The notes below the pieces were generated by a model that was given only the letters and a program-made list of their open reading frames with translations, searched no databases and had not been told where the DNA came from. A DNA stretch of 35,331 bases, taken from assembly GCA_017414605.1 (NCBI GenBank), contig JAFQLG010000093.1, positions 1 to 35,331 on the forward strand, read 5' to 3'. Shown here one piece after another: positions 4,647-32,728 of this stretch. The stretch is from Clostridia bacterium. Lineage in GTDB: Bacteria; Bacillota_A; Clostridia; Oscillospirales; CAG-272. The position numbers and the translations under genes are program-made. Position 1 is the first letter of the stretch; each line of letters begins with the position of its first letter.

Positions 4647-4659
4647 AGGAGGTAGCGCT

Positions 4660-14472: not shown

Positions 14473-14598
14473 TGATACGAGTTAAGGACACTTAACTTTG
14501 CTCGTTTCATTTACGTTGCCTCGGGGGAGGAGTACACAGGGAAAGATAGCGGCGTTCTTGTGTGAGGCGCGTGGGGAGAGGTGAAGGGGCAAAAAGGC

Positions 14599-14622
14599 TC
14601 CTCGGGTGGCGGCTGCCGAGGA
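14599..14622 (+). other. Hairpin in the leader of the tail cassette
   Basis: TCCTCGG (14599-14605) pairs with CCGAGGA (14616-14622) around a 10-nt loop, 27 nt before the first start codon. A shorter CCTC-GGGG-GAGG hairpin lies near 14519-14530. The rest of the leader is purine-rich and holds no open frame with a credible start. The function is unknown. Confidence 0.5.
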
Positions 14623-14649
14623 TGCAACTCTGTAAAGAAAGGAATTTTT

Positions 14650-15750
14650 ATGGAAAAGGTAACAAGAAATATTACAGTCGACCTGTCGCGCAAGAGCAAT
14701 GCCCGCGTTGTTTTTGCAACGCAGAACGATCTTAAGTCACGCCGCCTTTCGATAAGGCTCACCGATGACGGAAAGCCTTATTCTGTAAGCCGTGACGTGA
14801 CCGCAACCGTCAATTTTGCCTGCGCGGACGGAACGAGCGGAGCTTATCTTGGCGAGGTGTGCGAAAACGGCTATGTCGAATACGTTATAGACGCCGCTAT
14901 CCTGCTTTGTGCGGGGCAGACCAAATGCTCCGTTTCACTTACAGGCGCGGATGGAGCAAAATTGACCAGCTCGCAGTTTGTCATAGACGTTGCAAGTGCG
15001 CTTTACGCAGGCGATGACATCAGTCCCGAAGCGGCGCAAAGTCTTATCGACAGTATGATGCAGGCGCACGCCACTATGCAGGAGGCGGAGGCTCGGAGAG
15101 AGGCGCAGGACACCGTTCGCGAGGGCAATGAAGCCTCAAGAGAGGCGGCGGAGATAGGGAGAGCCGATGCGGAAAATCAAAGAGCGGAGGCGGAGCAATC
15201 AAGGCAGGGGTACTACGAGAGCATAGACGAGCTGCTTTTGGGCATCGAGGAAGTGCAAAAAGGTTATATAGGCGAGTTTTCGGATTCTGCGGCTCTGGTG
15301 GAACTTGGGCGCGTTTATCCCATAGGCTCGGTGTATATCTCGGAAAAAGCAACCAGCCCTGCCCAGCTTTTCGGCGGTGTCTGGGAGCAGATCCACAACA
15401 GATTTTTAGCGGCGGCGGGAGGCTTGGAGTGGTCTGCCGCAGGAACTATGGGCGGTACCGCTGCACACGCGCACGAACACGATTTGTGGGCTGATATTTA
15501 TATACTTGGTGAGGATACTGAGCATAGAGATAAAGGCATTATGCTGATGAGGAGCAAGTCACACGAAAACTTTCGCTATATGGACTACATATTGCAAGAT
15601 AATGGCGCTCTGACAAGGGTAACTCTACCAAATAAAGACGTAACTGGTAGTATAGCTTACAAACATGCTACTGACGTTGACGGCACTATCAACAGCTCAA
15701 GCAATTTGCCGCCCTATTTGACGGTATATATGTGGAAACGAGTGGCTTAA
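14650..15750 (+). CDS. Phage baseplate/tail-fibre protein, BppU-like N-terminus
   Basis: This is a phage tail-tip protein of 366 residues. Residues 1-130 resemble the BppU-type baseplate attachment domain (DUF2479): it opens with a short segment and alternating strands such as RRLSIRLTDDGKPYSV and ends near SSQFVIDVASALYAGDD. Residues about 145-215 are a charged, Ala/Glu-rich coiled coil. The rest begins YPIGSVYISEKATSPAQLFGGVWEQ in the family (positions about 220-245) and ends NLPPYLTVYMWKRVA, the classic tail-collar/receptor-binding tip. The start ATG at 14650 follows AAAGGA; an upstream GTG start at 14581 is less likely. The base composition turns AT-rich after about 15480, suggesting an exchanged tip. 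It is the first gene of an isolated tail cassette. Confidence 0.82.
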   Translation: MEKVTRNITVDLSRKSNARVVFATQNDLKSRRLSIRLTDDGKPYSVSRDVTATVNFACADGTSGAYLGEVCENGYVEYVIDAAILLCAGQTKCSVSLTGADGAKLTSSQFVIDVASALYAGDDISPEAAQSLIDSMMQAHATMQEAEARREAQDTVREGNEASREAAEIGRADAENQRAEAEQSRQGYYESIDELLLGIEEVQKGYIGEFSDSAALVELGRVYPIGSVYISEKATSPAQLFGGVWEQIHNRFLAAAGGLEWSAAGTMGGTAAHAHEHDLWADIYILGEDTEHRDKGIMLMRSKSHENFRYMDYILQDNGALTRVTLPNKDVTGSIAYKHATDVDGTINSSSNLPPYLTVYMWKRVA

Positions 15751-15763
15751 GGAGGGTATAGAT

Positions 15764-16225
15764 ATGAGAATATTTGACGAAACAAAAACGGTTGAATTGA
15801 CAGAATTTGACCTTGCCAAAGGCTATCTTAAGACCGAGTTTATAGAAACCGAAATAGCCGAGCAGGCGGCGGTTGCCGAGGTGTCGCACTATGAGGTCGT
15901 AAAGCAGTATGAAAACGGCGGTTACGACGTAAAAAAGGTGATCGACGTTGAAGAGATGCCCTATGCTCCCGCGAGAGTGGAGCGCGAGGAGATAGGGGTA
16001 TATATCCCTTATACCGAAAGGGAACTTGAGGTCATGGCGGCAGAGCGCGAGATAAGAGATCTCAAGGTCAGACTTGCCGAGAGCGACTACAAGGCGATAA
16101 AGTACGCGGAGGGCTTTATTACCGAGCCCGAATACGCGCCGATAAGAGCCGAAAGGCAGGCTTGGAGGGAGCGCATAGGCGCTCTTGAGGCGGTTTTGGT
16201 CGATGGCGGAGGTGAAGGCCGATGA
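15764..16225 (+). CDS. Phage tail accessory protein (XkdW-like position)
   Basis: This 153-residue acidic protein is of uncertain family. It lies directly after a tail-fibre gene, where siphophages and PBSX-like elements carry small XkdW-type or fibre-assembly proteins. The sequence is rich in Glu and begins MRIFDETKTVELTEFDL. The C-terminal half (about 85-148) is predicted helical and coiled-coil-like, with EAEREIRDLKVRL-type heptads. There are no Cys, signal peptide or membrane segments. The ribosome site TAAGGAGGG is strong, and the stop overlaps the next start by ATGA, so it belongs to the same transcript. Confidence 0.65.
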   Translation: MRIFDETKTVELTEFDLAKGYLKTEFIETEIAEQAAVAEVSHYEVVKQYENGGYDVKKVIDVEEMPYAPARVEREEIGVYIPYTERELEVMAAEREIRDLKVRLAESDYKAIKYAEGFITEPEYAPIRAERQAWRERIGALEAVLVDGGGEGR

Positions 16226-16959
16226 GTGAGCAGAAGGGTAACGTTTTTGACAGTCTGAAAAGGGTCAGCGAGAACGTAACCAAAGTGTTTCAGTCAGGTG
16301 TTTCAAGAGGCATTCAGCAGGCTCGAAAGGTCGCCGACAATGAGTTCTGGAATGGCTTTACCGATAACGGAAGCAGAACGACTTATGCTCGCGCGTTTTC
16401 CTATTGGGGCAGCGAATACCTGCGCCCTGCGAAAAAGATAATTTTTACGCAGGCGGACTCGGGAATGAACACTTTTTCGTTCAACACCAAGTTGAAAAGG
16501 GTGGAATCGGCTTATTTTGATTTTTCGCAAAAGGCAAGAGGAACAGGAACACAGAGCGGCTACTATTTCACCTTCTATAACTGCAAGGCATTGGAGGAAA
16601 TAGAAGATATAGGTATGCAACCCGATTTCACCTATAATAATGCTTTTGCTAACTGTGTCAGATTACACACGATAGCAAAAATGAGAGCAGACGAGGATAC
16701 CGCATTTACGAATGCTTTTGACTTTTGCAATGCTTTGCAAAACGTAACCTTTGAGGGTGTTATCGGTCAAAACTTGAACGTTCGTTGGAGTACGAAATTA
16801 TCCAAGGACAGCATTTCCAATATCGTGTCTTGTCTATCCGACACGGCAAGCGGAAAGACGCTTTCCTTGTCAAAAACGGCGGTTAACAACGCATTTACGG
16901 ATGCCGAGTGGACAGCTCTTGCCGACACCAAGAAAAATTGGACTATTTCTTTAGTCTGA
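16222..16959 (+). CDS. Phage-associated leucine-rich-repeat-like protein
   Basis: This 245-residue protein has an N-terminal helical part (1-50) followed by irregular repeats that resemble BspA-type leucine-rich repeats. Examples are FYNCKALEEIEDIG (about 117-130), FANCVRLHTIAKM (145-157) and FDFCNALQNVTFEG (about 166-179); each has the pattern F-x-x-C-x-x-L. Such proteins occur near tail fibres in gut phages and may bind surface ligands. The C-terminal segment (190-245) has the BspA-like SNIVSCLSDTASGKTLSLSK. The start overlaps the preceding stop (ATGA). I cannot name the family with certainty. Confidence 0.65.
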   Translation: MSEQKGNVFDSLKRVSENVTKVFQSGVSRGIQQARKVADNEFWNGFTDNGSRTTYARAFSYWGSEYLRPAKKIIFTQADSGMNTFSFNTKLKRVESAYFDFSQKARGTGTQSGYYFTFYNCKALEEIEDIGMQPDFTYNNAFANCVRLHTIAKMRADEDTAFTNAFDFCNALQNVTFEGVIGQNLNVRWSTKLSKDSISNIVSCLSDTASGKTLSLSKTAVNNAFTDAEWTALADTKKNWTISLV

Positions 16960-16974
16960 ATTCGGAGGTGAAAT

Positions 16975-17151
16975 ATGAGCAGAAAAATATTGACCGCGAG
17001 TGAGGGCAAGATGTTGACGGACGGCGAAATTTACGGCAAGGTCATTTATCTTGCCGAGTGTGTGGACGGGGCAAGCTTTTATGAGATCACGGATCGGGAA
17101 TATAAGCAGATAATGCTTGAAGATGACCGAGGTGGAGGCGATCATGCTTGA
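16975..17151 (+). CDS. Short phage tail-region protein (58 residues)
   Basis: A 58-residue open frame begins MSRKILTASEGKML and ends DDRGGGDHA, behind the strong ribosome site CGGAGG (16963-16968). Its size and position, between a tail protein and an XhlA-like gene, match the small XkdX-type or host-specificity accessory proteins of phages. No motif identifies it. Its stop overlaps the start of the next gene (ATGCTTGA at 17144-17151), so translation is coupled. Confidence 0.6.
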   Translation: MSRKILTASEGKMLTDGEIYGKVIYLAECVDGASFYEITDREYKQIMLEDDRGGGDHA

Positions 17152-17452
17152 CCACGAGGATCTTGTGAAGGCGGTGGCAGAAAACGAGCAGAGAAGCAAG
17201 TCCAATTCTCACAGAATAACCGCGCTTGAACAAAACGCCAAGCTGCTAAACAAAATGGTAACCGCGCTTGAGGTGCTCGCAACTCAGCAAAAAAACGTTG
17301 CGGATCAGGTTGAAAAAATTGATGGCAAGGTGACAAAGCTGGAGCAATCGCCTATGAAGAGGATATCCGCCGTCATAGGATATATTCTTGCCGCGATATG
17401 CTCCGCGGGAGCAGGTCTGCTTTTGGGATTTATTCAGGATTTCGGGGCATAA
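17144..17452 (+). CDS. XhlA-like phage membrane protein
   Basis: This 102-residue protein resembles the haemolysin XhlA family, cell-surface proteins found beside holins in PBSX-like prophages. The N-terminal part (about 8-70) is a coiled coil with heptads such as ENEQRSKSNSHRITALEQNA. A C-terminal membrane helix (about 78-97, ISAVIGYILAAICSAGAGLL) follows. I chose ATG 17144 because GGAGG (17134-17138) lies 5 nt upstream; starts at 17123 or 17117 have weaker sites. Normally a holin and an amidase follow, but here the next thing is a terminator-like hairpin and an unrelated operon. Confidence 0.72.
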   Translation: MLDHEDLVKAVAENEQRSKSNSHRITALEQNAKLLNKMVTALEVLATQQKNVADQVEKIDGKVTKLEQSPMKRISAVIGYILAAICSAGAGLLLGFIQDFGA

Positions 17453-17478: not shown

Positions 17479-17523
17479 AATAACCCCGTGTGAACGGACA
17501 AGGTTCGTTTGCACGGGGTTATT
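17479..17523 (+). terminator. Long hairpin after the tail cassette
   Basis: An 18-bp stem (17479-17496 with 17506-17523, two G-U wobbles) has a 9-nt loop, GACAAGGTT. The 3' side is followed by GGCTGTTTTAT, only a modest T tract. The strand is uncertain because the stem is symmetric; it most likely ends the tail cassette transcript. The rest of 17453-17626 is AT-rich without a credible gene. Confidence 0.72.
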
Positions 17524-17626: not shown

Positions 17627-17655
17627 TTGACTTTTGGTATATATAGTGATATAAT
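17627..17655 (+). promoter_or_regulatory. Promoter of the polysaccharide operon
   Basis: TTGACT (17627-17632) and TATAAT (17650-17655) have a 17-nt spacer and the extended -10 TGA. It is the only clear promoter before the 14-gene run that ends near 32728. Confidence 0.85.
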
Positions 17656-17776: not shown

Positions 17777-19036
17777 ATGAAGAAATTTGATAAAAAGGTT
17801 TGGCTTGCAACTCCTACGATGCACGGCGAGGAGATGCAGTTTGTAAAGCAAGCATACGATACCAACTGGGTAAGCACGGTTGGCGAAAACATAAACGAGG
17901 TAGAGCGCATTGCTGCAGACAAGGCAGAGATGAAATATGCCGTTGGCCTGTCCAGCTGTACCGCGGCTCTCCATTTGTGCGTTAAGGCGGCGGGCGAAAG
18001 ACTTTACGGTCGCCCCGCTATAAGTCACGGCGCGCTTGAGGGAAAACGCGTATTCTGCTCGGATATGACCTTTGATGCAACGCTTAACCCCGTAGTATAC
18101 GAGGGCGGTATTCCGATATTTATCGATACCGAGGCAGATTCCTGGAATATGGACCCCGTGGCGCTGGAGCGCGCATTTGAGCTTTACCCCGAAGTAAAGC
18201 TTGTAGTGTGTGCCGAGCTGTACGGATTCCCCGGAAAAATGGACGCAATAAGGGATATCTGTGACCGCCACGGAGCGCTGCTTATAGAGGACGCGGCAGA
18301 GGCCATGGGTGCAACGCTTGGCGGCAAGCAGTGCGGCTCTTTCGGCGATTACGGCGCCGTCAGCTATAACGGAAACAAGATAATAACGGGCTCTGCGGGC
18401 GGTTGCCTGCTTACCAACGACCTTGAGGTTGCAAACAAGGCGCGCAAGTGGTCCACCCAGGCCAGAGAAAATGCCCCCTGGTATCAGCACGAGGAGGTTG
18501 GATATAACTACCGCATGAGCAACATCGTTGCGGGTGTTATCCGCGGTCAGTACATATATCTTGAGGAGCATATCGCGCGCAAAAAGGCGGTCTACGACAG
18601 ATATTGCGAGGGCTTGAAGGGGCTTCCCGTAAAGATGAACCCGATCGTTGAGGCAAGTGAGCCTAACTATTGGCTTTCCGCAATGATCATTGACGAGGAG
18701 GCAATGTGCCGCCAGGTAAGAGATGACACTACCGCGCTTTATGTAAAGGAGCAGGGCAAGACCTGTCCTACCGAGATACTCGAAAAGCTTGCCGAGGCAA
18801 ACGCCGAGGGCAGACCTATCTGGAAGCCTATGCACATGCAGCCTATGTACCGCATGCACGAGTTTATCACGCGCGAGGGAAGCGCCAGAGCCAAGACAAA
18901 CGCTTATATCGCGGGCGGTTGTGCCGACGTTGGAGCCGACATTTTCAACCGCGGCCTGTGCTTGCCGAGCGATATAAAGATGACCGCCGAGGAGCAGGAT
19001 GCGGTCATAGAGATAATAAGATCCTGCTTTGAGTGA
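17777..19036 (+). CDS. DegT/DnrJ/EryC1 family sugar aminotransferase (PglE-like)
   Basis: This PLP-dependent enzyme transfers an amino group to a keto sugar nucleotide. The protein has 419 residues, slightly longer than the usual 370-400. The motifs are TVGENINEVE (34-43, substrate side), IEDAAEAMGA (170-179, with D172 touching the PLP nitrogen) and SYNGNKIIT (196-204), where K201 forms the Schiff base. The GNK variant of the lysine motif is typical of the UDP-4-keto-6-deoxy-HexNAc aminotransferases PglE/LegC type rather than VioA. No matching 4,6-dehydratase for UDP-GlcNAc (PglF) is present in the window, so it either uses an external one or another substrate. It is the first gene of the polysaccharide operon and sits before a PglC-like transferase, consistent with an amino sugar at the reducing end. 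Confidence 0.88.
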   Translation: MKKFDKKVWLATPTMHGEEMQFVKQAYDTNWVSTVGENINEVERIAADKAEMKYAVGLSSCTAALHLCVKAAGERLYGRPAISHGALEGKRVFCSDMTFDATLNPVVYEGGIPIFIDTEADSWNMDPVALERAFELYPEVKLVVCAELYGFPGKMDAIRDICDRHGALLIEDAAEAMGATLGGKQCGSFGDYGAVSYNGNKIITGSAGGCLLTNDLEVANKARKWSTQARENAPWYQHEEVGYNYRMSNIVAGVIRGQYIYLEEHIARKKAVYDRYCEGLKGLPVKMNPIVEASEPNYWLSAMIIDEEAMCRQVRDDTTALYVKEQGKTCPTEILEKLAEANAEGRPIWKPMHMQPMYRMHEFITREGSARAKTNAYIAGGCADVGADIFNRGLCLPSDIKMTAEEQDAVIEIIRSCFE

Positions 19037-19074: not shown

Positions 19075-19740
19075 ATGTATTCCAAGTTTTTTAAGAGATT
19101 TTTTGACATCGTTTTGTCTTTGATGGCTATATCGGTGCTGTCGCCTTTTTTGCTCATCTTTACGATCGTTGGAGCGATAGCGATGAAGGGAAATCCCTTC
19201 TACATACAAAAGCGACCCGGAAAGATCGATAAGAAAACGGGCAAGGAGCGCATCATAAAGCTTTTCAAGTTTCGTTCTATGTCCAATGCAAAGGACGAAA
19301 ACGGCAATCTTCTTCCCAGCAAGGACAGACTGAACAAATACGGCCGCATCATAAGAGCGCTTTCTATTGACGAGCTGCCCTCGCTATTGAACATTCTTAT
19401 CGGCGACTTGTCTATAGTCGGCCCCAGACCCTTGGCGGTAAAGTATCTGGATTACTACACCGAGGAGGAGCGCAGACGTCACACCGTTCGCCCCGGACTT
19501 ACGGGCCTTGCTCAATGCATGGGAAGAAACAATCTTTCCTGGGAGGAAAAGTTCGCTTACGATCTTGAATACGTTGACAACATCTCCTTGGCAATGGACG
19601 TTAAGGTTATTTTCAAAACCTTGATCAAGGTGCTTAAACGCGAGGGAATCGGGCAGGGCGAGCAGCAGCCCGTCAGCCTGCATATTGAGCGCGCTGACAG
19701 AGTTTTGCGCAGAGATGCGGAAAGCGTTAGCGAAAAATAA
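19075..19740 (+). CDS. PglC-like phosphoglycosyl transferase
   Basis: This monotopic phosphoglycosyl transferase starts repeat-unit synthesis by moving a sugar phosphate from a nucleotide sugar to undecaprenyl phosphate. The protein has 221 residues, the size of PglC/WecP-minimal forms rather than long WbaP types. The re-entrant helix (about 9-34) is broken by S23-P24, as in PglC. Further motifs are QKRPGK, LFKFRSM, and DELPSLLNILIGDLSIVGPRP with catalytic D99-E100, then VRPGLTGLAQCMGRNNLSWE. The ATG at 19075 follows GGAGGA (19065-19070); the longer frame from 19033 lacks a site. It follows the PglE-like gene by 38 nt. Confidence 0.9.
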   Translation: MYSKFFKRFFDIVLSLMAISVLSPFLLIFTIVGAIAMKGNPFYIQKRPGKIDKKTGKERIIKLFKFRSMSNAKDENGNLLPSKDRLNKYGRIIRALSIDELPSLLNILIGDLSIVGPRPLAVKYLDYYTEEERRRHTVRPGLTGLAQCMGRNNLSWEEKFAYDLEYVDNISLAMDVKVIFKTLIKVLKREGIGQGEQQPVSLHIERADRVLRRDAESVSEK

Positions 19741-19812
19741 TGCGGCGGAGAGCTTCTTGCATTGCAAGAACCCATTCGCCAATACAATAATTTTTGAAAG
19801 GTGATTTTGCAT

Positions 19813-21099
19813 ATGTTTGAGAATTGTAAAGGAAAAAAGCTTTTGCTCATCGGAGTTGAGGAAAATGAAAGCTTGACAAGAGCCGCTCACGAAATGGGCG
19901 TCTACGTTATACTTATAGACAGGAATGCCAGCAAAATAAACTGTCTTTCCAAGAGCCTTGCGGACGAGGTCTGGGAGATGGACTATTCTGATATTGACGC
20001 GGTGGTTAAAAAGTGCCGCGAAAACGGAGTTGGCGGAGTTATGGCGGGATACAGCGAGTTCAAGGTTGCTTCCGCACAAAAGGTGGCAGAGGCTCTGGGC
20101 ACCCCGTTTTACGCAACTGCAGAGCAGATAGAGCTTACGAGAAACAAGCGCACGTTCAAGGATATGTGCGAAAAATATGACATTCCCACCCCCAGAGATT
20201 ATCGCTTTACAAAGGGCATAAGCGAGGAGGATAAAAAGCATATCGTATATCCCGTTATCATTAAGCCCACAGACTATGCAGGCTGCAAGGGTATTTCCGT
20301 TTGCCATAGTGAGAGCGAGCTTGATGAGGCGGTAAGATATGCGCTTGAATATTCCGTAAGCCAGACGATCATTTGCGAGCAATATCTGGTTGGCGTTGAG
20401 TTTGCGGCTATATACACCATAGTTGACGGAGTTGCAAGCCTTTCCTGCCTGAACGATAAATTTATCTCTCGCAATGACGAGGGCTTTGCAGGTCGCTGTG
20501 CGCTCGTGTTTACCCCCTCGAAATATTATGGCAAGTTTATGGAAACCGTTGACGGAAAGATCAAGACCTTCCTTAAGGGAATAGGCGCCCAAAACGGAGT
20601 TGCATTTTTCCAGGGTATCGCAAACGATGAGAGCATTCACGTTTTTGAGATGGGTTACCGCCTCAACGGAAATAACGACTGCACGATTATTGAGAAGTTT
20701 AACAACATAAACTTTATGAAAATGCTGATATCCCATTCCTTAACGGGAAGCATGGGTGACGATATTTCAAAGGATAACCCCCAATTCAGCGAATATTCAA
20801 TATCGCTCTGTTTCCGCCTGCACCGCGGCGTTGTAAAGACTATCGATTATAGCAAAATATTTGATGATCCCAACGTTCTCGATGCGCATTGCTACATAAC
20901 GCCGGGAACCGAGATAGTAAATGAAAACACTTCGCAGAGCAGAGGACTTCTCGTTAAATTCAAGGCTCCCACCCTGGAGGATGTTGAAAAGACTATAAAG
21001 TCCTTGCAGTCAAAGGTATTCTTCCTTAACGAGAAGGGCGAGAATATGCTCTTTGACGGCTTTGATACCAAGCTTCTGTACGAAAGATACGGAAAATAA
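19813..21099 (+). CDS. ATP-grasp ligase in the polysaccharide locus (first of two)
   Basis: This ATP-grasp superfamily protein has 428 residues. The family joins a carboxylate to an amine or thiol through an acyl-phosphate. Residues 8-80 form a Rossmann-like pre-domain (LLLIGVEENESL, VILIDRNA). Residues 120-200 hold the ATP-binding lysines (YPVIIKPTDYAGCKGISV, with the flexible glycine loop). VEFAAIYT near 195-205 and HVFEMGYRLNGNND near 280-293 carry the Mg-binding Glu/Asn positions. It is not a purine-synthesis enzyme by context. It sits with a divergent DegT-like protein and a FemAB-like transferase, so a carboxyl group (amino acid or uronic acid) activation role in polysaccharide decoration is likely. 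Start ATG 19813 follows GAAAGGTG. A gap of 72 nt with an imperfect TTCTTGC/GCAAGAA hairpin separates it from the PglC gene. Confidence 0.85.
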   Translation: MFENCKGKKLLLIGVEENESLTRAAHEMGVYVILIDRNASKINCLSKSLADEVWEMDYSDIDAVVKKCRENGVGGVMAGYSEFKVASAQKVAEALGTPFYATAEQIELTRNKRTFKDMCEKYDIPTPRDYRFTKGISEEDKKHIVYPVIIKPTDYAGCKGISVCHSESELDEAVRYALEYSVSQTIICEQYLVGVEFAAIYTIVDGVASLSCLNDKFISRNDEGFAGRCALVFTPSKYYGKFMETVDGKIKTFLKGIGAQNGVAFFQGIANDESIHVFEMGYRLNGNNDCTIIEKFNNINFMKMLISHSLTGSMGDDISKDNPQFSEYSISLCFRLHRGVVKTIDYSKIFDDPNVLDAHCYITPGTEIVNENTSQSRGLLVKFKAPTLEDVEKTIKSLQSKVFFLNEKGENMLFDGFDTKLLYERYGK

Positions 21100-21118
21100 A
21101 GATTCAGGATTTCAGATT

Positions 21119-22120
21119 ATGAGAAAAGAGATCGGCAGCGAATTCTGGAGCGTTCCGACAACCAACGCGGAGCGAGGCATTTTTGCTGATGACACCGGCT
21201 GGTTTATGTCGGGAAGAAGCGCCCTTGAAGCCATTATTGTTCATGCTATGGACAGCTCCGGTGCAAAGGTGGCTCATCTTCCTTCCTGGTGCTGTGACAG
21301 TATGATAATTCCTTTTGTAAAGCACGGGCTGGAGGTCAGATTTTACCCCGTGTATATGAGGAATGGGGAGCTTGTTCAAGAGATACCCGAGTGCGAGGCG
21401 GGCGAGCTTTTGCTCGTTATGGATTATTTCGGATATTCAAGCGAATATAGCGCCGATGGGCAAAAGGCAACGGTTATCCGAGATCTCACCCACACGGTGT
21501 TTTCAAATGATCGGCATGACGCGGATTATTATTTCGGCAGCCTGCGCAAATGGTGCGGGTTCAAAACGGGCGGCTTTGCTATAGGCATTGGCAAACAGCT
21601 CATGCCCACAGCCGAAAAATACGTTGCCCTCAGGAGCAGAGCAATGGAGGCAAAGGCGGGATATATGCAAGGAGAGCGCGAGGACAAAGGATATCTTGCT
21701 TGCTTTGCAGAGGCAGAAGAATACCTCGATCATTCGCCCGTTGCGGGAGCTCTGCCATGTGAGATAGAGCTGGCGAACAAAATCGACGTTGAGCTTATCA
21801 GAAACAGGCGCAGACAAAACGCCGCAATTCTTATGGAGGCTTTTCCGGAGCATCTTATTTTTGACAGGCTTTGCGACCGGGACTGTCCATTGTTCGTTCC
21901 AATAGTTCTTGATCCAACCGTGCGTGACGGATTGAGAAAACATTTGATATCAAGAGAGATCTATCTGCCTATACATTGGCCGATATCGAGCTATCATAAG
22001 CTTGATGGTAATACGCGCGATATTTATGAGCGCGAGATCAGTCTTGTATGCGACCAGCGCTATGGGCAAGAGGATATGTACCGCATGGTAAATGCAATAA
22101 ATGATTATTTTAAGAGGTAA
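21119..22120 (+). CDS. Divergent DegT-like PLP-fold protein
   Basis: This 333-residue protein shares the fold-type I PLP pattern but is far from classical DegT. The putative cofactor aspartate is D122 in VIRDLTHTVF and the putative Schiff-base lysine is K144 in SLRKWCGFKTGG. GRSALEAII (32-40) matches the phosphate-binding start of the fold, and PSWCCDSMIIPF (55-66) replaces the usual substrate loop. The C-terminal part (235-333) has FPEHLIFDRL and LPIHWP, the latter seen in similar proteins beside FemAB genes. The start ATG at 21119 has a weak ribosome site; translation may be coupled to the ATP-grasp gene ending 20 nt upstream. Three nucleotides separate its stop from the FemAB-like start. 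The substrate is unknown. Confidence 0.72.
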   Translation: MRKEIGSEFWSVPTTNAERGIFADDTGWFMSGRSALEAIIVHAMDSSGAKVAHLPSWCCDSMIIPFVKHGLEVRFYPVYMRNGELVQEIPECEAGELLLVMDYFGYSSEYSADGQKATVIRDLTHTVFSNDRHDADYYFGSLRKWCGFKTGGFAIGIGKQLMPTAEKYVALRSRAMEAKAGYMQGEREDKGYLACFAEAEEYLDHSPVAGALPCEIELANKIDVELIRNRRRQNAAILMEAFPEHLIFDRLCDRDCPLFVPIVLDPTVRDGLRKHLISREIYLPIHWPISSYHKLDGNTRDIYEREISLVCDQRYGQEDMYRMVNAINDYFKR

Positions 22121-22123
22121 GGT

Positions 22124-23164
22124 ATGCTGTCCGTTTATACAGTAGAGAGATCGACCGAATGGGACGATATAGTGAGATCGTTCTCAAAATATGATACGTA
22201 TTGGCTTTGCGGTTACGTAAAAGCATTTCAGATCCATGGGGAAGGAGAGCCCTTGCTCTTCTACTATGATGACGGATGCGGAACTCGCGCCATCAACGTT
22301 GTAATGAAACGCGATATTGCCGGATGCAAGAGCTTTTGCGGCGCTTTGCCAGAGAATACGTATTTTGATTTTTCAACGCCTTATGGATATGGGGGATGGC
22401 TCATTGAGGGTGAAAACACCGCCGAGCTGTTCGGAGCGTATGAGCTTTGGTGCAAGAACAACAATATCGTTTCCGAGTTTGTCAGATTTCATCCCGTTGT
22501 GGACAATCACGTTGCTGCGGCACAAGCCTATGAAACGGTAGAGCTTGGTTACGTGGTCACTATGGATCTGTCGAGCAAGGAAACCCTTTATGCCAATATT
22601 ACAAGCAAGAATCGCAACGTAATAAGGAAGGCGCAAAAAAACGGAGTTAAGATATATAACGGTCGGTTTGAGGAGATATTCCGAGAGTTCCGAGAGGTAT
22701 ATAACGAAACCATGGACAAGGATAACGCCGATTCGTATTATTATTTTGGCGAGGAGTTTTACAAAAGTATCGTTGAGGACCTGCCATATAATGCGCAGAT
22801 GTTTTACGCTGTCTATGAAGGACGCGTTATCGCGGCATCTATTATGCTTATGGCAAACGGAATGATGAATTATCATCTGTCCGGCTCGAGGCGCGAGTTT
22901 TCAAGCCTTGCCCCCACAAATCTTTTACTTTATGAGGCGGCGCTCTGGGGCTGCCATAACGGATATAAGACATTATATCTCGGCGGCGGCGTTGGAAGCG
23001 CGGAGGATAGCCTTTTCAAGTTCAAAAAGGCTTTTTACAGACAGGATGATCCCAACCGCTTTGTTATCGGTAAAAAGATATTCAATAGTGAGATCTACGA
23101 CAGGCTAGTCAGTATGAGAGAGGACGTTTCCGAGAGCGGATTCTTTCCCAAATACAGAGCGTAA
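22124..23164 (+). CDS. FemAB/GNAT-type transferase (BioF2-like)
   Basis: This 346-residue protein belongs to the peptidoglycan-interpeptide FemAB/GNAT superfamily. Such enzymes transfer aminoacyl groups from aminoacyl-tRNA (FemX) or acyl groups from CoA (CelD-type). Two GNAT halves are visible. The first (1-140) is degenerate. The second (150-340) has the signature NRNVIRKAQKNGVKI (about 166-180), the acyl-donor loop VYEGRVIAASIMLMANG (around 226-242) and the C-terminal motif YHLSGSRREFSSLAPTNLLL (247-266). The frame begins 3 nt after the DegT-like stop, so the two are coupled. With the adjacent ATP-grasp gene this makes an aminoacylation/acylation module for a surface polymer; the donor is not predictable. 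Confidence 0.8.
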   Translation: MLSVYTVERSTEWDDIVRSFSKYDTYWLCGYVKAFQIHGEGEPLLFYYDDGCGTRAINVVMKRDIAGCKSFCGALPENTYFDFSTPYGYGGWLIEGENTAELFGAYELWCKNNNIVSEFVRFHPVVDNHVAAAQAYETVELGYVVTMDLSSKETLYANITSKNRNVIRKAQKNGVKIYNGRFEEIFREFREVYNETMDKDNADSYYYFGEEFYKSIVEDLPYNAQMFYAVYEGRVIAASIMLMANGMMNYHLSGSRREFSSLAPTNLLLYEAALWGCHNGYKTLYLGGGVGSAEDSLFKFKKAFYRQDDPNRFVIGKKIFNSEIYDRLVSMREDVSESGFFPKYRA

Positions 23165-23205: not shown

Positions 23206-24393
23206 ATGGATATAGTAATTTTAGCTGACTTTAGCGGTTCTTTTGACGGGAGGACCAACAATCGCTTTATGTATCTCGCAAATATGCTGTCTGAAGAGCA
23301 CAGCGTTGAGCTTGTAACCAGTGATTTTCATCATGGCAGCAAAACGCATTTTGCAAAAACGCCCGAGGACTATCCTTTTAAGGTGACGATGCTGCATGAG
23401 GCGCAGTACAAGAAAAATATCAGCTTAAAGCGCTTTTACAGTCATTTCGTATGGGGCAGCGAGGTCAAAAAGTATCTCAAAAAGAGAAAAAAGCCGGACG
23501 TTATTTATTGTGCCGTGCCCACGCTTTACGCATCGTATAATGCGGCAAAGTATTGTAAGAAAAACGGTGTAAAGTTTATAGTTGACATACAGGACCTATG
23601 GCCCGAGGCATTTAAGATGGTATTGCGCATACCCGTTGTCAGCGATATTATTTTTGCCCCCTTTACCTTCCTTGCAAACGGCATATATAAGCGCGCGGAC
23701 GAGGTGGTGGCGGTTTCCGACACCTACGTAAATAGGGCGCAAAGGGTGAATAAAAAAGGAAATAACGGCCATACCGTTTATCTTGGAACAAGGCTTGAAA
23801 CCTATGATGGCGGAGCAAGCCAAGCTCCTCTCTATACAAAGCCCGAGGGGGAGATGTGGATAGGATATTGTGGCACTCTCGGCGCAAGCTATGACATTCC
23901 CAATCTCATATATGCAATAAAGCAGCTTGGCGAAAAAGGAATAAGCAATCTTAAGCTGATAGTTATGGGAGATGGAGCCCGTCGCGCTGATTTTGAGGCT
24001 ATTGCCGAGCAGAGCGGGATAAATTGCTTGTTTACTGGCCGCTTGCCTTACGGGGATATGTGCGCACAGCTGACTCAGTGCGATATAGTGGTTAATCCGA
24101 TAAAACGCGGCTCGGCGGCAAGTATAATAAACAAGCACGCGGACTATGCGGCATCGGGACTTCCCGTTGTTAACTCTCAGGAGAGCCGAGAGTACAGAGA
24201 GCTTATTGAGCGCTATAATATGGGGCTCAACTGCAAAAATGAGGACGCGAATGATATGGCAGACAAGCTTGAGATGCTTGTTGCCAACCGCGAGCTGCGT
24301 ATTGAAATGGGCAAGAACGCCCGCCGCTGCGCAGAGGAAAGATTTGATAGAAAGAATAGCTATAAGGAGATAGCGGACGCTATTGTGGGCTGA
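23206..24393 (+). CDS. Glycosyltransferase family 4
   Basis: This retaining GT-B fold glycosyltransferase has 395 residues. The N-terminal Rossmann domain begins MDIVILADFSGSFDGRTNN. The C-terminal domain has the donor-binding sequence GYCGTLGASYDIPNLI (around 224-239), the E-x7-E-like region KRGSAASIINKHADYAASGLP (about 306-326 in part), and VVNSQESREY. A linker segment IVDIQDLWPEAF (about 125-136) resembles WbuB-type L-fucosamine transferases. There is no signal peptide; it works at the cytoplasmic face on the lipid-linked repeat unit. The start has AGGAATTG-type weak spacing but is the first in-frame ATG after the FemAB-like gene. Confidence 0.86.
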   Translation: MDIVILADFSGSFDGRTNNRFMYLANMLSEEHSVELVTSDFHHGSKTHFAKTPEDYPFKVTMLHEAQYKKNISLKRFYSHFVWGSEVKKYLKKRKKPDVIYCAVPTLYASYNAAKYCKKNGVKFIVDIQDLWPEAFKMVLRIPVVSDIIFAPFTFLANGIYKRADEVVAVSDTYVNRAQRVNKKGNNGHTVYLGTRLETYDGGASQAPLYTKPEGEMWIGYCGTLGASYDIPNLIYAIKQLGEKGISNLKLIVMGDGARRADFEAIAEQSGINCLFTGRLPYGDMCAQLTQCDIVVNPIKRGSAASIINKHADYAASGLPVVNSQESREYRELIERYNMGLNCKNEDANDMADKLEMLVANRELRIEMGKNARRCAEERFDRKNSYKEIADAIVG

Positions 24394-28427: not shown

Positions 28428-29654
28428 ATGAAAGCACTTGTTTTAGCGGGAGGATTTCCGCAAATAGCATTGATAAAAGACCTCAAGAGCAGGGGGATAA
28501 CCGTTGTTTTGGCGGATTGGAATCGCGAGCCCGTTGCAAAAAAATATGCGGACGTGTTCTATCAGGAGTCCACTCTGGATATTGAGGCGATAAAGCGCGT
28601 TGCCGTTGCGGAAAAGGTGGACTTTCTCATCACGGTTTGCACAGATCAGGCGTTGCTCACCGTTGCAAAGGTGTCCGAGGATCTGGGCTTGCCCTGCTAT
28701 ATAGACTATCAGACCGCGCTGAACGTAACCAACAAGGCTTATATGAAAAAAGTGTTTGAGGAGCACGGCGTGTCAACCGCAAAGCACGTTTGTATGGCGG
28801 AGCTTGACGAGGCGGCTATCGCCGACATGCCTTATCCTCTTATAGTAAAGCCCGTGGATTGCAACAGCTCCAAGGGCGTAAAAAAAGTTGAAAACATTGA
28901 AGAATTGAGGGCGGCTTTTGCCGATGCAGTTCGTTTCAGCCGAACCGATACGGCTATCGTTGAGAGGTTTATTGACGGACCCGAGATAAGCGTTGACGTT
29001 TACGTTGAGGAGGGACGCGCAAAGGTGCTTTGCATCTCAAACAACGTTAAAATTGCCGATAAGGACAAGTTCGTCATTTTCAGAGGACGTTGTCCTGCGG
29101 CGGAGGCAGAGGCAGTCCGAGAGCAGATAGAGAAAACTGCGCAGCAAATAGCGGACGCCTTTGGACTTAAGAATACGCCCATGCTCATTCAGCTGATAAC
29201 GAACGGCAAGGAAGTGTTCGTTCTGGAATTCAGCGCGAGAACGGGTGGAGGAACCAAATTTTTGAGAATTAAGAGAATGACGGGATTTGACGTTGTAGGC
29301 GCGGTCATTGATCTTACGTTAGGTAAAAAGCCGCACGTTGAGGATTTTGACACAAACGCTTCCTATCTCGTTGACGATTTTATATACTGTAAGCCCGGCA
29401 GATTTGACCATCTTGAAGGCTTTGACGAGATGGTAGCGGCGGGCTATATGACCGATTATTATCTTTTCAAATGGCGCGGCGCGGAGTTCGATACTATTGA
29501 AAACAGCGGAGATCGCATTGCAGGCTTTACCGTTTGGGCAGATTCGCTTGAAGGGCTTAAGCAAAAGCACAGGATCATTTGCGATAACATCAAGGTAATT
29601 GACGACGGCGGCAACGATATGATGCGCCACGACCTGCTTTGCGAGGTTGAATAA
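28428..29654 (+). CDS. ATP-grasp ligase in the polysaccharide locus (second of two)
   Basis: This 408-residue ATP-grasp protein is clearly different from the first one but built on the same plan. The pre-domain starts MKALVLAGGFPQIALIKDL, with ADWNREPVAKKYAD and ITVCTDQALLTVAK following. YPLIVKPVDCNSSKGVKKV (144-162) is the ATP-binding strand and glycine-type loop. VERFIDGPEISVDVYV (182-197) and FVLEFSARTGGGTKF (near 262-276) contain the acidic metal-binding positions. It is not part of a purine or arginine operon. It sits immediately before a VioA-type aminotransferase and RfbA-RfbB, so it may acylate the amino group of the resulting sugar nucleotide. This is inference. The start follows AAAGG by about 9 nt. 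Confidence 0.82.
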   Translation: MKALVLAGGFPQIALIKDLKSRGITVVLADWNREPVAKKYADVFYQESTLDIEAIKRVAVAEKVDFLITVCTDQALLTVAKVSEDLGLPCYIDYQTALNVTNKAYMKKVFEEHGVSTAKHVCMAELDEAAIADMPYPLIVKPVDCNSSKGVKKVENIEELRAAFADAVRFSRTDTAIVERFIDGPEISVDVYVEEGRAKVLCISNNVKIADKDKFVIFRGRCPAAEAEAVREQIEKTAQQIADAFGLKNTPMLIQLITNGKEVFVLEFSARTGGGTKFLRIKRMTGFDVVGAVIDLTLGKKPHVEDFDTNASYLVDDFIYCKPGRFDHLEGFDEMVAAGYMTDYYLFKWRGAEFDTIENSGDRIAGFTVWADSLEGLKQKHRIICDNIKVIDDGGNDMMRHDLLCEVE

Positions 29655-29674
29655 TTACTAAAAGGAGAATTGAT

Positions 29675-30763
29675 ATGTCAATCAACGTAACGCGCTCCTC
29701 GATGCCCGGCTTTGAGGAATATTGCGAGGAGATCAAAGATCTGTGGGAGAGCCGTTGGCTTACCAATATGGGTGCAAAGCACAACGCGCTCAAAGCAAAG
29801 CTTTGCGATTATCTCAAGGTGCCTAACGCCGAGCTGTTTGTAAACGGTCATCTGGCGCTGTATTGCGCGATCAAGGCATTGAAGCTTGAGGGCGAGATAA
29901 TCACAACACCATTCACCTTTGCCTCCACCACAAATGCTATAGTTCAGGCGGGCTGCACTCCTGTATTCTGCGACGTGGCGGACGATTACACGATAGACGT
30001 TACCAAGATAGAGGAGCTTATAACCGACAAGACCTCGGCAATTCTCGGTGTCCACGTTTACGGTAACATTTGTGACGTTGAGGCGATAGATGAGATAGCC
30101 AAAAAGCACGGTCTTAAGGTCATTTACGATGCGGCACACGCCTTTGGCGTTGAATATCGCGGCAGGGGTATCTGCACTTTCGGTGACGTATCTATGCTGT
30201 CCTTCCACGCGACAAAGGTGTTCCACACCATTGAGGGCGGAGCGCTTTGCTACAATGATGCGTCTTTGACGCCCGAGATCGTTAAGCAGCGCGGCTTTGG
30301 CCTTAACGGCGAGGAGATAGACTGCTTTGGAACAAACGGCAAAATGAACGAATTTCAGGCGGCTATGGGACTTTGCAATCTTCGCCATATAGACGGCGAG
30401 ATAGAATCGCGCGGAAAGGCTTATCGCCGCTATGACGAAAGACTTTCGGGCATTGAGGGCTTGAAGCTCTTGCCTTTGCATGAGGGAATTAAGCAAAACT
30501 TTGCATACTATCCCGTGCTTTTCGATAAAGCGGTATTCGGCAAGAATCGCGACGAGGTTATGGCTACCTTGGCGGAGAACGGAATTGTAGCGAGAAAGTA
30601 TTTCTATCCGCTCGTTTCGGCTAACAAGGAATTTGGATGCGAGCTTACGCATCTAACGCCCATTGCAAAGAGCTATTCCGAAAACGTACTTTGTTTACCT
30701 ATGTTCGCCCATCTTGATCTGGCGGACGTTGATAAAATATGCGATCTGATCATTAAAGGATAA
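29675..30763 (+). CDS. DegT family aminotransferase, VioA/DesI-like
   Basis: This PLP-dependent sugar aminotransferase has 362 residues. The motif SFHATKVFHTIEGG (176-189) has the Schiff-base lysine K181 and matches the HATK form found in VioA/DesI, which make dTDP-4-amino-4,6-dideoxyglucose from dTDP-4-keto-6-deoxyglucose. D152 in IYDAAHAFG binds the PLP nitrogen. The opening ESRWLTNMGAKHNAL replaces the usual GP-x3-G segment. Its direct neighbours rfbA and rfbB provide exactly the expected keto sugar, and rfbC/rfbD for rhamnose are absent from the window. A strong ribosome site AAAAGGAG precedes the start. FdtB/QdtB-type 3-amination remains possible. Confidence 0.86.
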   Translation: MSINVTRSSMPGFEEYCEEIKDLWESRWLTNMGAKHNALKAKLCDYLKVPNAELFVNGHLALYCAIKALKLEGEIITTPFTFASTTNAIVQAGCTPVFCDVADDYTIDVTKIEELITDKTSAILGVHVYGNICDVEAIDEIAKKHGLKVIYDAAHAFGVEYRGRGICTFGDVSMLSFHATKVFHTIEGGALCYNDASLTPEIVKQRGFGLNGEEIDCFGTNGKMNEFQAAMGLCNLRHIDGEIESRGKAYRRYDERLSGIEGLKLLPLHEGIKQNFAYYPVLFDKAVFGKNRDEVMATLAENGIVARKYFYPLVSANKEFGCELTHLTPIAKSYSENVLCLPMFAHLDLADVDKICDLIIKG

Positions 30764-30775
30764 AGGAGAAAAACA

Positions 30776-31648
30776 ATGAAGGGTATTATTTTAGCAGGCG
30801 GCAAGGGAACAAGACTGTATCCCATGACCAAGGTGGTTTCAAAGCAGCTTCTTCCCATTTACGACAAGCCCCTTATCTATTATCCGCTTTCCATGCTTTT
30901 GCTGGCGGGTATTCGCGAGATTCTTATTATTTCCACGCCCGACGATCTTCCCAACTATGAAAGACTTCTCGGCACGGGCGAAAAGATTGGCGTTAAGTTT
31001 TCCTATAAGGTCCAGGACACGCCCCGCGGACTTGCGGACGCATTCATTCTCGGCGAGGAGTTTATCGGCGACGATAACGTATGCCTTATCCTTGGCGACA
31101 ACGTGTTCTACGGTCAGGATATGAGCCGAGTGCTCTGGAGAGCAAAAGACAGAAAGGTTGGAGCCACTATTTTCGGCTATCCCGTTCAGGATGCGCGAGC
31201 ATTCGGTGTAGTTGAATTCGACAAGGATCGCAAAGTGGTTTCTATTGAGGAAAAGCCCGAGCATCCCAAGTCCAATTATGCCGTTCCCGGTCTTTATTTC
31301 TACGATAACAGAGTTATCGAGATAGCAAAGAACGTAAAGCCCTCGGCGCGCGGCGAGATAGAGATAACCGCAGTTAACAATGCATATCTTGAAATGGGCG
31401 AGCTGCACGTTGAGCTTTTAGGTCGCGGCATGGCATGGCTCGATACGGGAACGCCCGAGGGTATGCTCAAGGCGGGCATGTACGTTGAGGCAGTCCAGGA
31501 AAGACAGGGCTTTTACATATCCTGCATAGAGGAGATCGCTTGGCGCCGCGGATTTATCACCACCGAGCAGCTCATTAAGCTCGGCGAGGAGCTCAGGATG
31601 ACGGATTACGGTCAGTATCTGCTCACCATAGCAAAGGAAGAAAAATAA
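30776..31648 (+). CDS. rfbA: Glucose-1-phosphate thymidylyltransferase
   Basis: This enzyme joins glucose 1-phosphate and dTTP to dTDP-glucose. The 290-residue protein has the signature [20 protein letters not shown] (2-21), then [19 protein letters not shown] (22-40) and [10 protein letters not shown] (103-112) with the metal-binding Asp. [20 protein letters not shown] (139-158 in part) and the ending AWLDTGT (around 217-223) are also typical. It precedes rfbB, which uses its product. The ribosome site is AAAGGAG. The absence of rfbC and rfbD nearby fits use of dTDP-glucose for a deoxyamino sugar rather than rhamnose. Confidence 0.96.
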
Positions 31649-31702
31649 TTAACGTTAAGGATAAAAAATAATAAATTCGCACAAGCGAAGAACGGAGTTT
31701 TT

Positions 31703-32728
31703 ATGTCAAAGACCATTATAGTTACCGGCGGCGCCGGCTTTATCGGCTCAAACTTTGTTTATCATATGCTTGACAAGCATAAGGATTACAAGATAGTCTG
31801 CGTGGACTGCCTGACCTATGCGGGCAATATGTCAACGCTTGCAGAGGCTATGAAAAACCCCAATTTCAAGTTTTATAAGACCAACATCTGCGACAGAGCG
31901 GGAATTTATGACATCTTTGAGGCTGAAAAGCCCGATATCGTTGTCAATTTCGCCGCAGAGAGCCACGTTGACCGCTCTATTGAAAACCCCGAGGTGTTCT
32001 TGCAGACCAATATTCTCGGCACGCAGGTAATGATGGACGCTTGTCGCAAGTACGGCATTGAGAGATATCACCAGGTGTCCACGGACGAGGTGTACGGCGA
32101 CCTTCCGCTTGACCGCCCCGACCTGTTCTTCACCGAGGAAACGCCTATACACACAAGCTCGCCTTATTCCAGCTCCAAGGCGGGAGCTGACCTTTTGGTG
32201 CTTGCATATCATCGCACCTTCGGTCTTCCCGTAACCATCAGCCGTTGCTCCAACAACTACGGGCCTTATCATTTCCCCGAGAAGCTTATTCCTCTTATGA
32301 TAGCAAATGCGCTGGGTGACAAGCCTCTGCCCGTTTACGGCAAGGGTGAGAACGTTCGCGATTGGCTGTACGTTGAGGATCACTGCAAGGCGATCGACCT
32401 CATAATCCACAACGGTAGAGTGGGTGAGGTATACAACGTTGGCGGTCACAACGAGATGGCTAACATTGATATAGTCAAGCTCATCTGCCACAAGCTCGGC
32501 AAGCCCGAGAGCCTTATCACCTACGTTGCTGACAGAAAGGGACACGATATGCGTTACGCTATCGACCCCACAAAGATCCATTCCGAGCTTGGCTGGCTTC
32601 CCGAAACAAAATTTGCGGAGGGAATTGACAAGACGATAAAGTGGTATCTTGAAAACAAGGAGTGGTGGGAAACCATCATTTCGGGAGAATACCAGAACTA
32701 TTACGAAAAGATGTACGGCAACAGATAA
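31703..32728 (+). CDS. rfbB: dTDP-glucose 4,6-dehydratase
   Basis: This NAD-dependent short-chain dehydrogenase converts dTDP-glucose to dTDP-4-keto-6-deoxyglucose. The 341-residue protein has GGAGFIGSNF (9-18) for NAD binding, the catalytic D128-E129 in STDEVYGD, and the Y155-x3-K159 pair in YSSSK. NNYGPYHFPEKLIPLMI is a further family signature. It is the last gene of the polysaccharide operon and feeds the VioA-like aminotransferase two genes upstream. It starts 54 nt after rfbA, a slightly larger gap than between other genes. A terminator follows 18 nt after the stop. Confidence 0.97.
   Translation: MSKTIIVTGGAGFIGSNFVYHMLDKHKDYKIVCVDCLTYAGNMSTLAEAMKNPNFKFYKTNICDRAGIYDIFEAEKPDIVVNFAAESHVDRSIENPEVFLQTNILGTQVMMDACRKYGIERYHQVSTDEVYGDLPLDRPDLFFTEETPIHTSSPYSSSKAGADLLVLAYHRTFGLPVTISRCSNNYGPYHFPEKLIPLMIANALGDKPLPVYGKGENVRDWLYVEDHCKAIDLIIHNGRVGEVYNVGGHNEMANIDIVKLICHKLGKPESLITYVADRKGHDMRYAIDPTKIHSELGWLPETKFAEGIDKTIKWYLENKEWWETIISGEYQNYYEKMYGNR

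What the first reader, a model, noticed from the sequence alone, without database searches (positions are those of the whole stretch)
19813..23164. ATP-grasp / divergent PLP protein / FemAB-like module in a polysaccharide operon
Three consecutive genes encode an ATP-grasp ligase, a very divergent DegT-like PLP protein and a FemAB/GNAT transferase. The second and third are only 3 nt apart. ATP-grasp enzymes activate carboxylates and FemAB proteins transfer aminoacyl or acyl groups, so the module may build an amino acid derivative and attach it to a polysaccharide. The set is not part of any pathway I can name. That it is a coherent decoration system is inference from order and coupling.
Basis: partly seen in the sequence, partly recalled or inferred. 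Interest (0 to 1): 0.72.

Follow-up and report, generated by a model that had tools for sequence, protein, structure and literature searches.

The report
Polysaccharide sugar-acylation genes with FemAB
The three genes sit in a bacterial surface-polysaccharide cluster, in the spot where many relatives keep the enzyme that acetylates the cluster's first sugar, and they probably put an amino acid there instead, borrowed from the cell's protein-making machinery.

Summary
In detail: ATP-grasp (19813-21099), a divergent DegT-fold PLP protein (21119-22120) and a FemAB/FemX-like transferase (22124-23164) lie in one + strand run. The unit starts earlier, with a PglE/EpsN-like 4-aminotransferase (17777) and a PglC/EpsL-like phosphoglycosyltransferase (PGT). 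FemAB is the core. In two genome samples a PGT lies within four genes of FemAB in 16 of 23 loci, and legionaminic-type genes in 5; 2 are cut by contig ends. FemAB takes the slot that holds a PglD/EpsM-like N-acetyltransferase in 34 of 64 EpsN+PGT loci. The two were never found together (none in 34 loci scanned). ATP-grasp, GNAT, SDR and PLP genes are optional partners; the exact trio is rare (1 of 23). Best reading: FemAB aminoacylates the 4-amino group of QuiNAc4N from aminoacyl-tRNA (FemX's catalytic Lys kept in 140 of 140, its UDP-MurNAc-site Arg not), and ATP-grasp and PLP tailor the acyl group. No chemistry was tested. Closest in print: C. difficile type B flagellin locus (FemAB + ATP-grasp + FdtB-like; Fuc3N carrying Gly-Ala-taurine) and Neisseria PglB2.

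The parts
17480..17522 (+). intrinsic-terminator-like hairpin ending the upstream genes
   Evidence: 20-pair stem; consensus match only
17627..17655 (+). best promoter-like site before the operon: TTGACT, 17 nt, TATAAT with TG before the second hexamer
   Evidence: 11 of 12 matches; the total of 21 sites in the region is not above the shuffle mean of 25.2, so suggestive only
17777..19036 (+). EpsN/PglE/LegC-like aminotransferase expected to make UDP-QuiNAc4N (UDP-4-amino-4,6-dideoxy-GlcNAc)
   Evidence: Pfam DegT E 5e-71; TIGR04181 LegC 280 bits, under its cut-off of 420; best solved structures 1o61 E 3e-61 and 4ztc E 1e-60, the latter titled PglE
19075..19740 (+). PglC/EpsL-like phosphoglycosyltransferase (PGT, initiating sugar transferase); mechanical ORF starts GTG 19033, likely start ATG 19075 behind GGAGG
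   Evidence: Pfam Bac_transf E 2e-53; sequence
19813..21099 (+). ATP-grasp carboxylate-amine ligase (ATP-grasp 1)
   Evidence: 4dim E 4e-15; L-amino acid ligase 3vot E 1e-9; Lys112, Lys151 128 of 128
21119..22120 (+). divergent DegT-fold PLP protein
22124..23164 (+). FemAB/FemX-like double-GNAT transferase, the conserved core of the module
23206..24393 (+). family 4 glycosyltransferase that follows the module; similar ones follow it in some relatives
   Evidence: Pfam Glycos_transf_1 E 9e-19; e.g. L086, L090, L096
28428..29654 (+). second ATP-grasp (ATP-grasp 2); relatives directly follow EpsN (L131) or EpsN-PGT (L109)
   Evidence: Pfam ATP-grasp_4 E 4e-18, LAL_C2 E 2e-5 (under cut-off)
29675..30763 (+). 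DegT aminotransferase, DesI/VioA-like
   Evidence: Pfam DegT E 6e-90; TIGR04427 268 bits, under its cut-off of 650
30776..31648 (+). RmlA (glucose-1-phosphate thymidylyltransferase)
   Evidence: TIGR01207 461 bits, over its cut-off
31703..32728 (+). RmlB (dTDP-glucose 4,6-dehydratase)
   Evidence: TIGR01181 480 bits, over its cut-off

Best explanation
The module is an N-acylation cassette for the priming sugar of a surface polysaccharide. The EpsN-like enzyme (17777) makes UDP-QuiNAc4N (inferred from homology) and the PGT loads it on undecaprenyl phosphate (inferred). In place of the usual PglD/EpsM acetyltransferase, the FemAB protein transfers an amino acid from aminoacyl-tRNA to the free 4-amino group of that sugar, on the UDP or lipid carrier (inferred from fold, the kept catalytic lysine and slot replacement). 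The ATP-grasp then joins a further carboxylate, or acts as an alternative acylating enzyme, and the PLP enzyme remodels the acyl or amino-acid part (weakest step). Shown: genes, predicted folds, kept catalytic residues, linkage, slot substitution. Not shown: donor, acceptor, product.
Against: No biochemical or glycan data. The window shows no EpsC/PglF-type dehydratase and its genome is not held, so UDP-QuiNAc4N supply is assumed. PLP was not seen in 14 of 23 FemAB loci (2 of them cut upstream of FemAB) and ATP-grasp in 18 of 23, so their roles are guesses. Seven of 23 loci carry a GNAT directly before FemAB, so FemAB may not be the first acylating enzyme there; the window's relative L001 also has a small GNAT ORF. 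Ten of 64 EpsN+PGT loci show none of the three enzymes, so the slot can be empty in the stretch seen. Two distant FemAB relatives (27% and 24% identity; Azospirillum, D. actinosclerus) have no annotated aminotransferase or sugar transferase nearby. The exclusivity test rests on 6 FemAB loci, ignores relatedness, and uses a home-made PglD model. In C. difficile the FemAB mutant could not be made (PMC5207246), so that precedent is not direct proof for FemAB.
Confidence: 0.55

Rival explanations
1. The ATP-grasp alone acylates the 4-amino group (as PglB2 does with a glycerate-like acid), and PLP + FemAB serve a different sugar or decoration of the same polymer.
For: PglB2 is an ATP-grasp/PGT protein that makes GATDH (PMC11130364), and here the ATP-grasp directly follows the PGT; 16 of 64 EpsN+PGT loci carry an ATP-grasp and none of those 16 has FemAB; in ten loci an ATP-grasp directly follows the PGT, and L131 has EpsN followed by an ATP-grasp.
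Against: FemAB directly follows the PGT in loci where no ATP-grasp was seen (L085, L088 and Cetobacterium; L097 too, but it is cut just behind FemAB), so FemAB tracks the same sugar. ATP-grasp and FemAB occur side by side in L089, L091, L003-type order, L185 and the window, which suggests joint action.
Confidence: 0.2
2. The PLP protein is a sugar aminotransferase that creates a second amino group (for example at C3), and FemAB aminoacylates that one.
For: Fold closest to DegT-family sugar enzymes with catalytic Lys and Asp kept; in C. difficile the acylated sugar is a 3-amino sugar attributed to an FdtB-like DegT enzyme (PMC5207245, PMC5207246).
Against: FemAB occurs without PLP in sight in 14 of 23 loci; no sugar-3-dehydrogenase or ketoisomerase was seen to recur beside PLP (my reading, not a family search); several Leg- and Pse-type loci already have their own LegC/PseC-like aminotransferase (L043, L044, L046, L093, L095, L184).
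Confidence: 0.12
3. FemAB is an acyl-CoA-dependent GNAT or a peptidoglycan cross-bridge enzyme that sits in the operon for other reasons.
For: Pfam Acetyltransf_6 (a GNAT model) is its best Pfam hit.
Confidence: 0.08

Closest known systems
C. difficile type B flagellin glycan locus CDR20291_0244-0247 (PMC5207245, PMC5207246)
   Same: FemAB-type acyltransferase, ATP-grasp ligase and DegT-type aminotransferase side by side; an amino sugar N-acylated by amino acids; the authors propose the FemAB protein as the acylating enzyme; ATP-grasp mutant loses the terminal unit.
   Different: Sugar is Fuc3N on a flagellin O-glycan, not a PGT-primed polymer; its aminotransferase is FdtB-like by the paper, not the divergent PLP family; it has an ornithine cyclodeaminase-like gene. 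Its sequences were not compared here.
Neisseria PglB2 (ATP-grasp + PGT, makes GATDH; PMC11130364, PMC6959607)
   Same: 4-amino-6-deoxy-GlcNAc priming sugar acylated by something other than acetyl, with the ATP-grasp joined to the PGT; here the same two functions are adjacent genes.
   Different: No FemAB or PLP partner is named in the passages read; here an ATP-grasp is one of several optional partners of FemAB. Sequences not compared.
Bacillus EpsC-EpsN-EpsM-EpsL / Campylobacter PglF-PglE-PglD-PglC route to diNAcBac (recalled)
   Same: PglE-like aminotransferase followed by a PglC-like PGT.
   Different: No PglD/EpsM-like gene in the window or in 33 other loci scanned; FemAB stands in its slot.
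FemX/FemA and tRNA-dependent natural-product transferases (Sbb17/Sba18 in the PDB; Orf11, DhpH-C in PMC12945691)
   Different: UDP-MurNAc-site residues not kept; clustered with amino-sugar pathway genes, not peptidoglycan or antibiotic genes.

Membership tests
FemABX aminoacyl-tRNA-dependent transferases | double-GNAT fold | tested here: met
FemABX aminoacyl-tRNA-dependent transferases | catalytic Phe304-Lys305 (FemX numbering) | tested here: met
   HMMER alignment to 4ii9 (the chain is numbered one higher than the literature, my inference); Lys301 140 of 140, Phe/Tyr300 140 of 140; roles from PMC4964394
FemABX aminoacyl-tRNA-dependent transferases | UDP-MurNAc-peptide site residues Arg211 and Tyr215 (peptidoglycan branch only) | tested here: not met
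   aligned residues are Phe208 (138 of 140 F) and Phe212 (132 F, 8 Y); so not filed as a peptidoglycan FemX. Lys36 lies outside the aligned stretch
FemABX aminoacyl-tRNA-dependent transferases | uses aminoacyl-tRNA | not testable with these tools
   needs an assay
DegT/DnrJ/EryC1/StrS PLP enzymes | Pfam PF01041 match | tested here: not met
   no match at E<=0.1; relatives L043 (E 6e-4, just under cut-off) and L046 (E 3e-5, over cut-off) do match
DegT/DnrJ/EryC1/StrS PLP enzymes | fold and PLP-binding Lys/Asp | tested here: met
   distant relative by fold and profile
DegT/DnrJ/EryC1/StrS PLP enzymes | sugar aminotransferase activity | not testable with these tools
   substrate unknown
ATP-grasp ligases | Pfam ATP-grasp domain over cut-off and ATP-binding lysines | tested here: met
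diNAcBac (EpsCNML/Pgl) pathway | PglE-like aminotransferase and PglC-like PGT | tested here: met
diNAcBac (EpsCNML/Pgl) pathway | PglD/EpsM N-acetyltransferase | tested here: not met
   no ORF at E<1e-60 in the window and 33 other loci; the rest of the window's genome could not be searched
diNAcBac (EpsCNML/Pgl) pathway | 4,6-dehydratase (EpsC/PglF) | tested here: inconclusive
   not seen among the window genes scanned (RmlB at 31703 is the dTDP-glucose type); the rest of the genome is not held
C. difficile type B locus | same protein families by sequence | not tested
   the C. difficile proteins were not fetched; likeness is from the papers' domain names

The most novel reading that the evidence does not exclude
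A tRNA-dependent route decorates the lipid-linked first sugar of surface polysaccharides: FemAB loads an amino acid from aminoacyl-tRNA on the 4-amino group, and the DegT-like PLP enzyme then works on the sugar-bound amino acid (transamination or racemisation), after which SDR, GNAT or ATP-grasp partners turn it into hydroxy-acyl, N-acetyl-aminoacyl or peptidyl forms; the same toolkit serves bacillosamine-, legionaminic- and pseudaminic-type sugars.
Probability: 0.25. Interest if true: 0.75.

Novelty: new variant of a known kind. Interest (0 to 1): 0.55.

Why it matters
If right, the gene in this slot would predict whether the first sugar carries acetyl, another acid or an amino acid, and would link translation's charged tRNAs to cell-surface glycans. 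The prediction is directly testable with purified enzymes.

Tried and rejected
Rejected: PLP + FemAB + ATP-grasp as an obligatory trio (1 of 23 loci). Rejected: FemAB as an ordinary peptidoglycan FemX (acceptor residues differ, context differs). Rejected as chance: the PLP-FemAB linkage (control). Left open: PLP as racemase, transaminase of the bound amino acid, or sugar aminotransferase. Led nowhere: PDB by single PLP sequence (0 hits); PHROGs for the three proteins (one weak, unnamed hit); Pfam FemAB in two genomes with the tool's control genomes (3 of 14 ring), uninformative. Paper searches: ATP-grasp+FemAB+polysaccharide+aminotransferase (0), FemAB+glycan+aminoacyl+sugar nucleotide (0), DegT+FemAB+capsul (1, not relevant from the listing), WbqC+aminotransferase (3, listing only), PglB2+ATP-grasp (0), FemAB+bacillosamine (0), ATP-grasp+bacillosamine (0). 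Searches with 'ATP-grasp' miss papers that write 'ATP grasp' with a space, such as PMC11130364. FemAB+legionaminic found the C. difficile paper. 'Not in print' is claimed only for these searches of an open-access library.

Limits of my labels: the ORF caller drops a real gene when a longer antisense ORF overlaps it. In the window it lost the PGT and ATP-grasp under the antisense ORF 19384-20736, and in GC-rich records (L037, L038, L039) it fails often, so window labels come and those records from their own annotation. In Deinococcus proteolyticus the PLP-position gene is a DegT by annotation; my PLP model did not label it. Gene labels in relatives come from home-made HMMs, phmmer with fixed thresholds and, for Pse-type genes and WbqC, my reading of the N-termini, except. 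The PglD model was grown from one seed in L040. The PLP profile in 392 genomes of the order of G001 gave 27 with E<=1e-10 but only G001 below 1e-100.
Full report
What is there. The three ORFs exist as described, with one correction: the PLP protein starts at ATG 21119, not at the mechanical TTG 21053. The FemAB start is 3 nt behind the PLP stop, behind a GAGGTAAGG ribosome-site-like stretch. The run begins earlier: a terminator-like hairpin at 17480-17522, a promoter-like site at 17627-17655 (11 of 12 matches, though promoter-like sites in the region are not more frequent than in shuffles), then an EpsN/PglE-like aminotransferase (17777-19036) and a PGT (19075-19740). Behind FemAB come glycosyltransferases, a Wzy_C-type protein (26172) and, at 28428-32728, a second ATP-grasp with DegT, RmlA and RmlB.

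Where the genes occur. A profile of the FemAB protein (A2) in 391 genomes of the class of G001 (an Acetatifactor MAG) gives 66 with E<=1e-15, of which 14 stand apart (E<=5.3e-61; the next is 7e-28 and likely other FemX-type proteins). Thirteen were fetched and read with L001: PGT within one to four genes of FemAB in 10; legionaminic-type genes in 3; one (L091) at a contig end. A second sample (199 genomes of the phylum of G002, 9 positive including G002 itself) gave nine further loci from 8 genomes: PGT within two genes in 6, legionaminic-type genes in 2, one (L179) at a contig end. PLP is seen with FemAB in 9 of these 23 loci, a GNAT directly before FemAB in 7, ATP-grasp of any kind within a few genes in 5 (L089, L091, L179, L180 at a contig end with a weak match, L185). 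The exact trio is seen in 1 of 23 (L089), besides the window and L003. Named records: Cetobacterium dehydratase-LegC-PGT-FemAB, Priestia dehydratase-aminotransferase-PGT-GNAT-PLP-FemAB, Deinococcus proteolyticus sugar transferase-GNAT-DegT-FemAB by its annotation, Absicoccus porci EpsN-PGT-GNAT-PLP-FemAB, and Acetatifactor EpsN-PGT-SDR-PLP-FemAB with a small GNAT ORF between. Against the pattern: the Azospirillum and D. actinosclerus relatives (27% and 24% identity) have no annotated aminotransferase or sugar transferase within 9 kb, though the second has 'polysaccharide biosynthesis' and CapK genes.

The slot test. The window's EpsN found 84 of 391 genomes, 90 places. Eighty neighbourhoods were fetched and six more were in hand from the FemAB work; the three weakest places (G526:C23, G608:C137, G478:C10) were not fetched. 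Of 86 loci, 85 had a labelled EpsN and 64 also a PGT within -5 to +8 genes. Of the 64: 34 with a PglD/EpsM-like acetyltransferase, 16 with an ATP-grasp (2 of them with PglD), 6 with FemAB, 10 with none of these. PglD and FemAB never coincide (hypergeometric P 0.008; without requiring the PGT 36 and 6 of 85, P 0.03). ATP-grasp and PglD coincide less than expected (P 0.0002). These values ignore relatedness. In 34 loci with a FemAB relative, window included, a scan of all stop-to-stop ORFs of 120 aa or more found no PglD/EpsM-like gene at E<1e-60; six other hexapeptide-type ORFs matched more weakly (E 2e-47 to 5e-11), none with the PglD-type N-terminus as I read it. Several of those loci are short (3-8 kb).

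Beyond bacillosamine. PLP + FemAB stand beside some of LegB, LegC, NeuA, NeuB and NeuC-like genes in L044, L048, L093-L095, L184 and L186. In pseudaminic-type clusters (names by my reading, recalled) PLP stands with ATP-grasp (L045, L047), or is fused to Glyco_tran_28_C and cytidylyltransferase domains, PseG- and PseF-like (L043), or to a part that matches Glyco_tran_28_C only below its cut-off (L046). Locus L040 has EpsC-EpsN-PGT-ATP-grasp-octopine dehydrogenase-PLP-ATP-grasp without FemAB.

How it most likely works. These pathways share a 4-amino-4,6-dideoxy-HexNAc whose amine must be acylated (established, recalled). The acetyltransferase for that step was not found where FemAB occurs. FemAB alone can follow the PGT (L085, L088, Cetobacterium; L097 is cut behind it), so it is the likely substitute: aminoacyl-tRNA to 4-amino sugar. 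GNAT, ATP-grasp, SDR and PLP then look like optional tailoring of the amino-acyl group: N-acetylation, ligation, reduction, and a PLP reaction. The PLP step is the least certain; a sugar aminotransferase role is possible, but I saw no matching oxidase recur. L185 has three FemAB copies in a row before an ATP-grasp, which would suit a short peptide (inference).

Compared with print. In C. difficile type B flagellin, FemAB (0244), ATP-grasp (0245), an ornithine cyclodeaminase-like protein (0246) and an FdtB-like aminotransferase (0247) lie together; mutants of 0245 and 0246 lose the terminal unit, and mutants of 0244 and 0247 could not be made (PMC5207246, passages). The glycan is Fuc3N N-acylated by glycine, with alanine and taurine, and the authors name 0244 as the candidate for acylating the amino sugar (PMC5207245, abstract and passages). 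So the idea of a FemAB protein acylating an amino sugar is in print. PglB2 is described as 'ATP grasp/phosphorglycosyl-transferase' and makes GATDH (PMC11130364, passages; PMC6959607, passages). tRNA-dependent FemX-like enzymes act on other amines, among them Orf11 on streptothrisamine (PMC12945691, passages). What I did not find in print is the broad FemAB family in the EpsM/LegH slot, its link to the divergent PLP family, and the interchange among PglD, ATP-grasp and FemAB; no held paper joins the words FemAB and bacillosamine.

Score. Interest 0.55: a coherent, testable placement of large unnamed families, short of a new mechanism until the donor and product are measured.

Noticed in passing
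28428-32728: A second ATP-grasp lies with DegT, RmlA and RmlB, as if a dTDP-4-amino-4,6-dideoxy sugar in the same polymer is also acylated by an ATP-grasp; relatives of this ATP-grasp directly follow EpsN in L131 and EpsN-PGT in L109.
   Followed up: partly
14581-17452: Phage-like genes just upstream of the operon: BppU_N/Gp10_C tail protein, a small unknown, an LRR_5 protein and a phage hemolysin-family protein.
   Followed up: partly
L043:7743-10718; L046:279-2543: The PLP protein is fused to Glyco_tran_28_C and cytidylyltransferase domains (L043) or to a part matching Glyco_tran_28_C only below cut-off (L046), beside pseudaminic-type genes.
   Followed up: partly
L185:8353-11406: Three FemAB genes in tandem between a PGT and an ATP-grasp, suggestive of stepwise peptide building.
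   Followed up: no
L040:6311-11182: EpsC-EpsN-PGT-ATP-grasp-octopine dehydrogenase-PLP-ATP-grasp without FemAB; the dehydrogenase recalls the N-alkylated alanine of the C. difficile type B glycan.
   Followed up: no
L101, L103, L110, L113, L122, L135, L140, L153, L154, L165: Another ATP-grasp family (many begin MNILxxSxGRR) sits right behind the PGT of EpsN loci in place of PglD in ten loci.
   Followed up: partly
L041:12433-14128; L050:7190-9919: A second type of the PLP family (EIGGYFELE- or EIGSFLELD-like start) sits near a WbqC-like protein (my reading of the start), in L050 also with an SDR related to that of L001 (E 8e-143) and a VioA-like DegT.
   Followed up: no
5608-6609: Choloylglycine-hydrolase family protein (Pfam CBAH E 3e-80) behind a complete-looking Rnf operon at 590-5514.
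   Followed up: no
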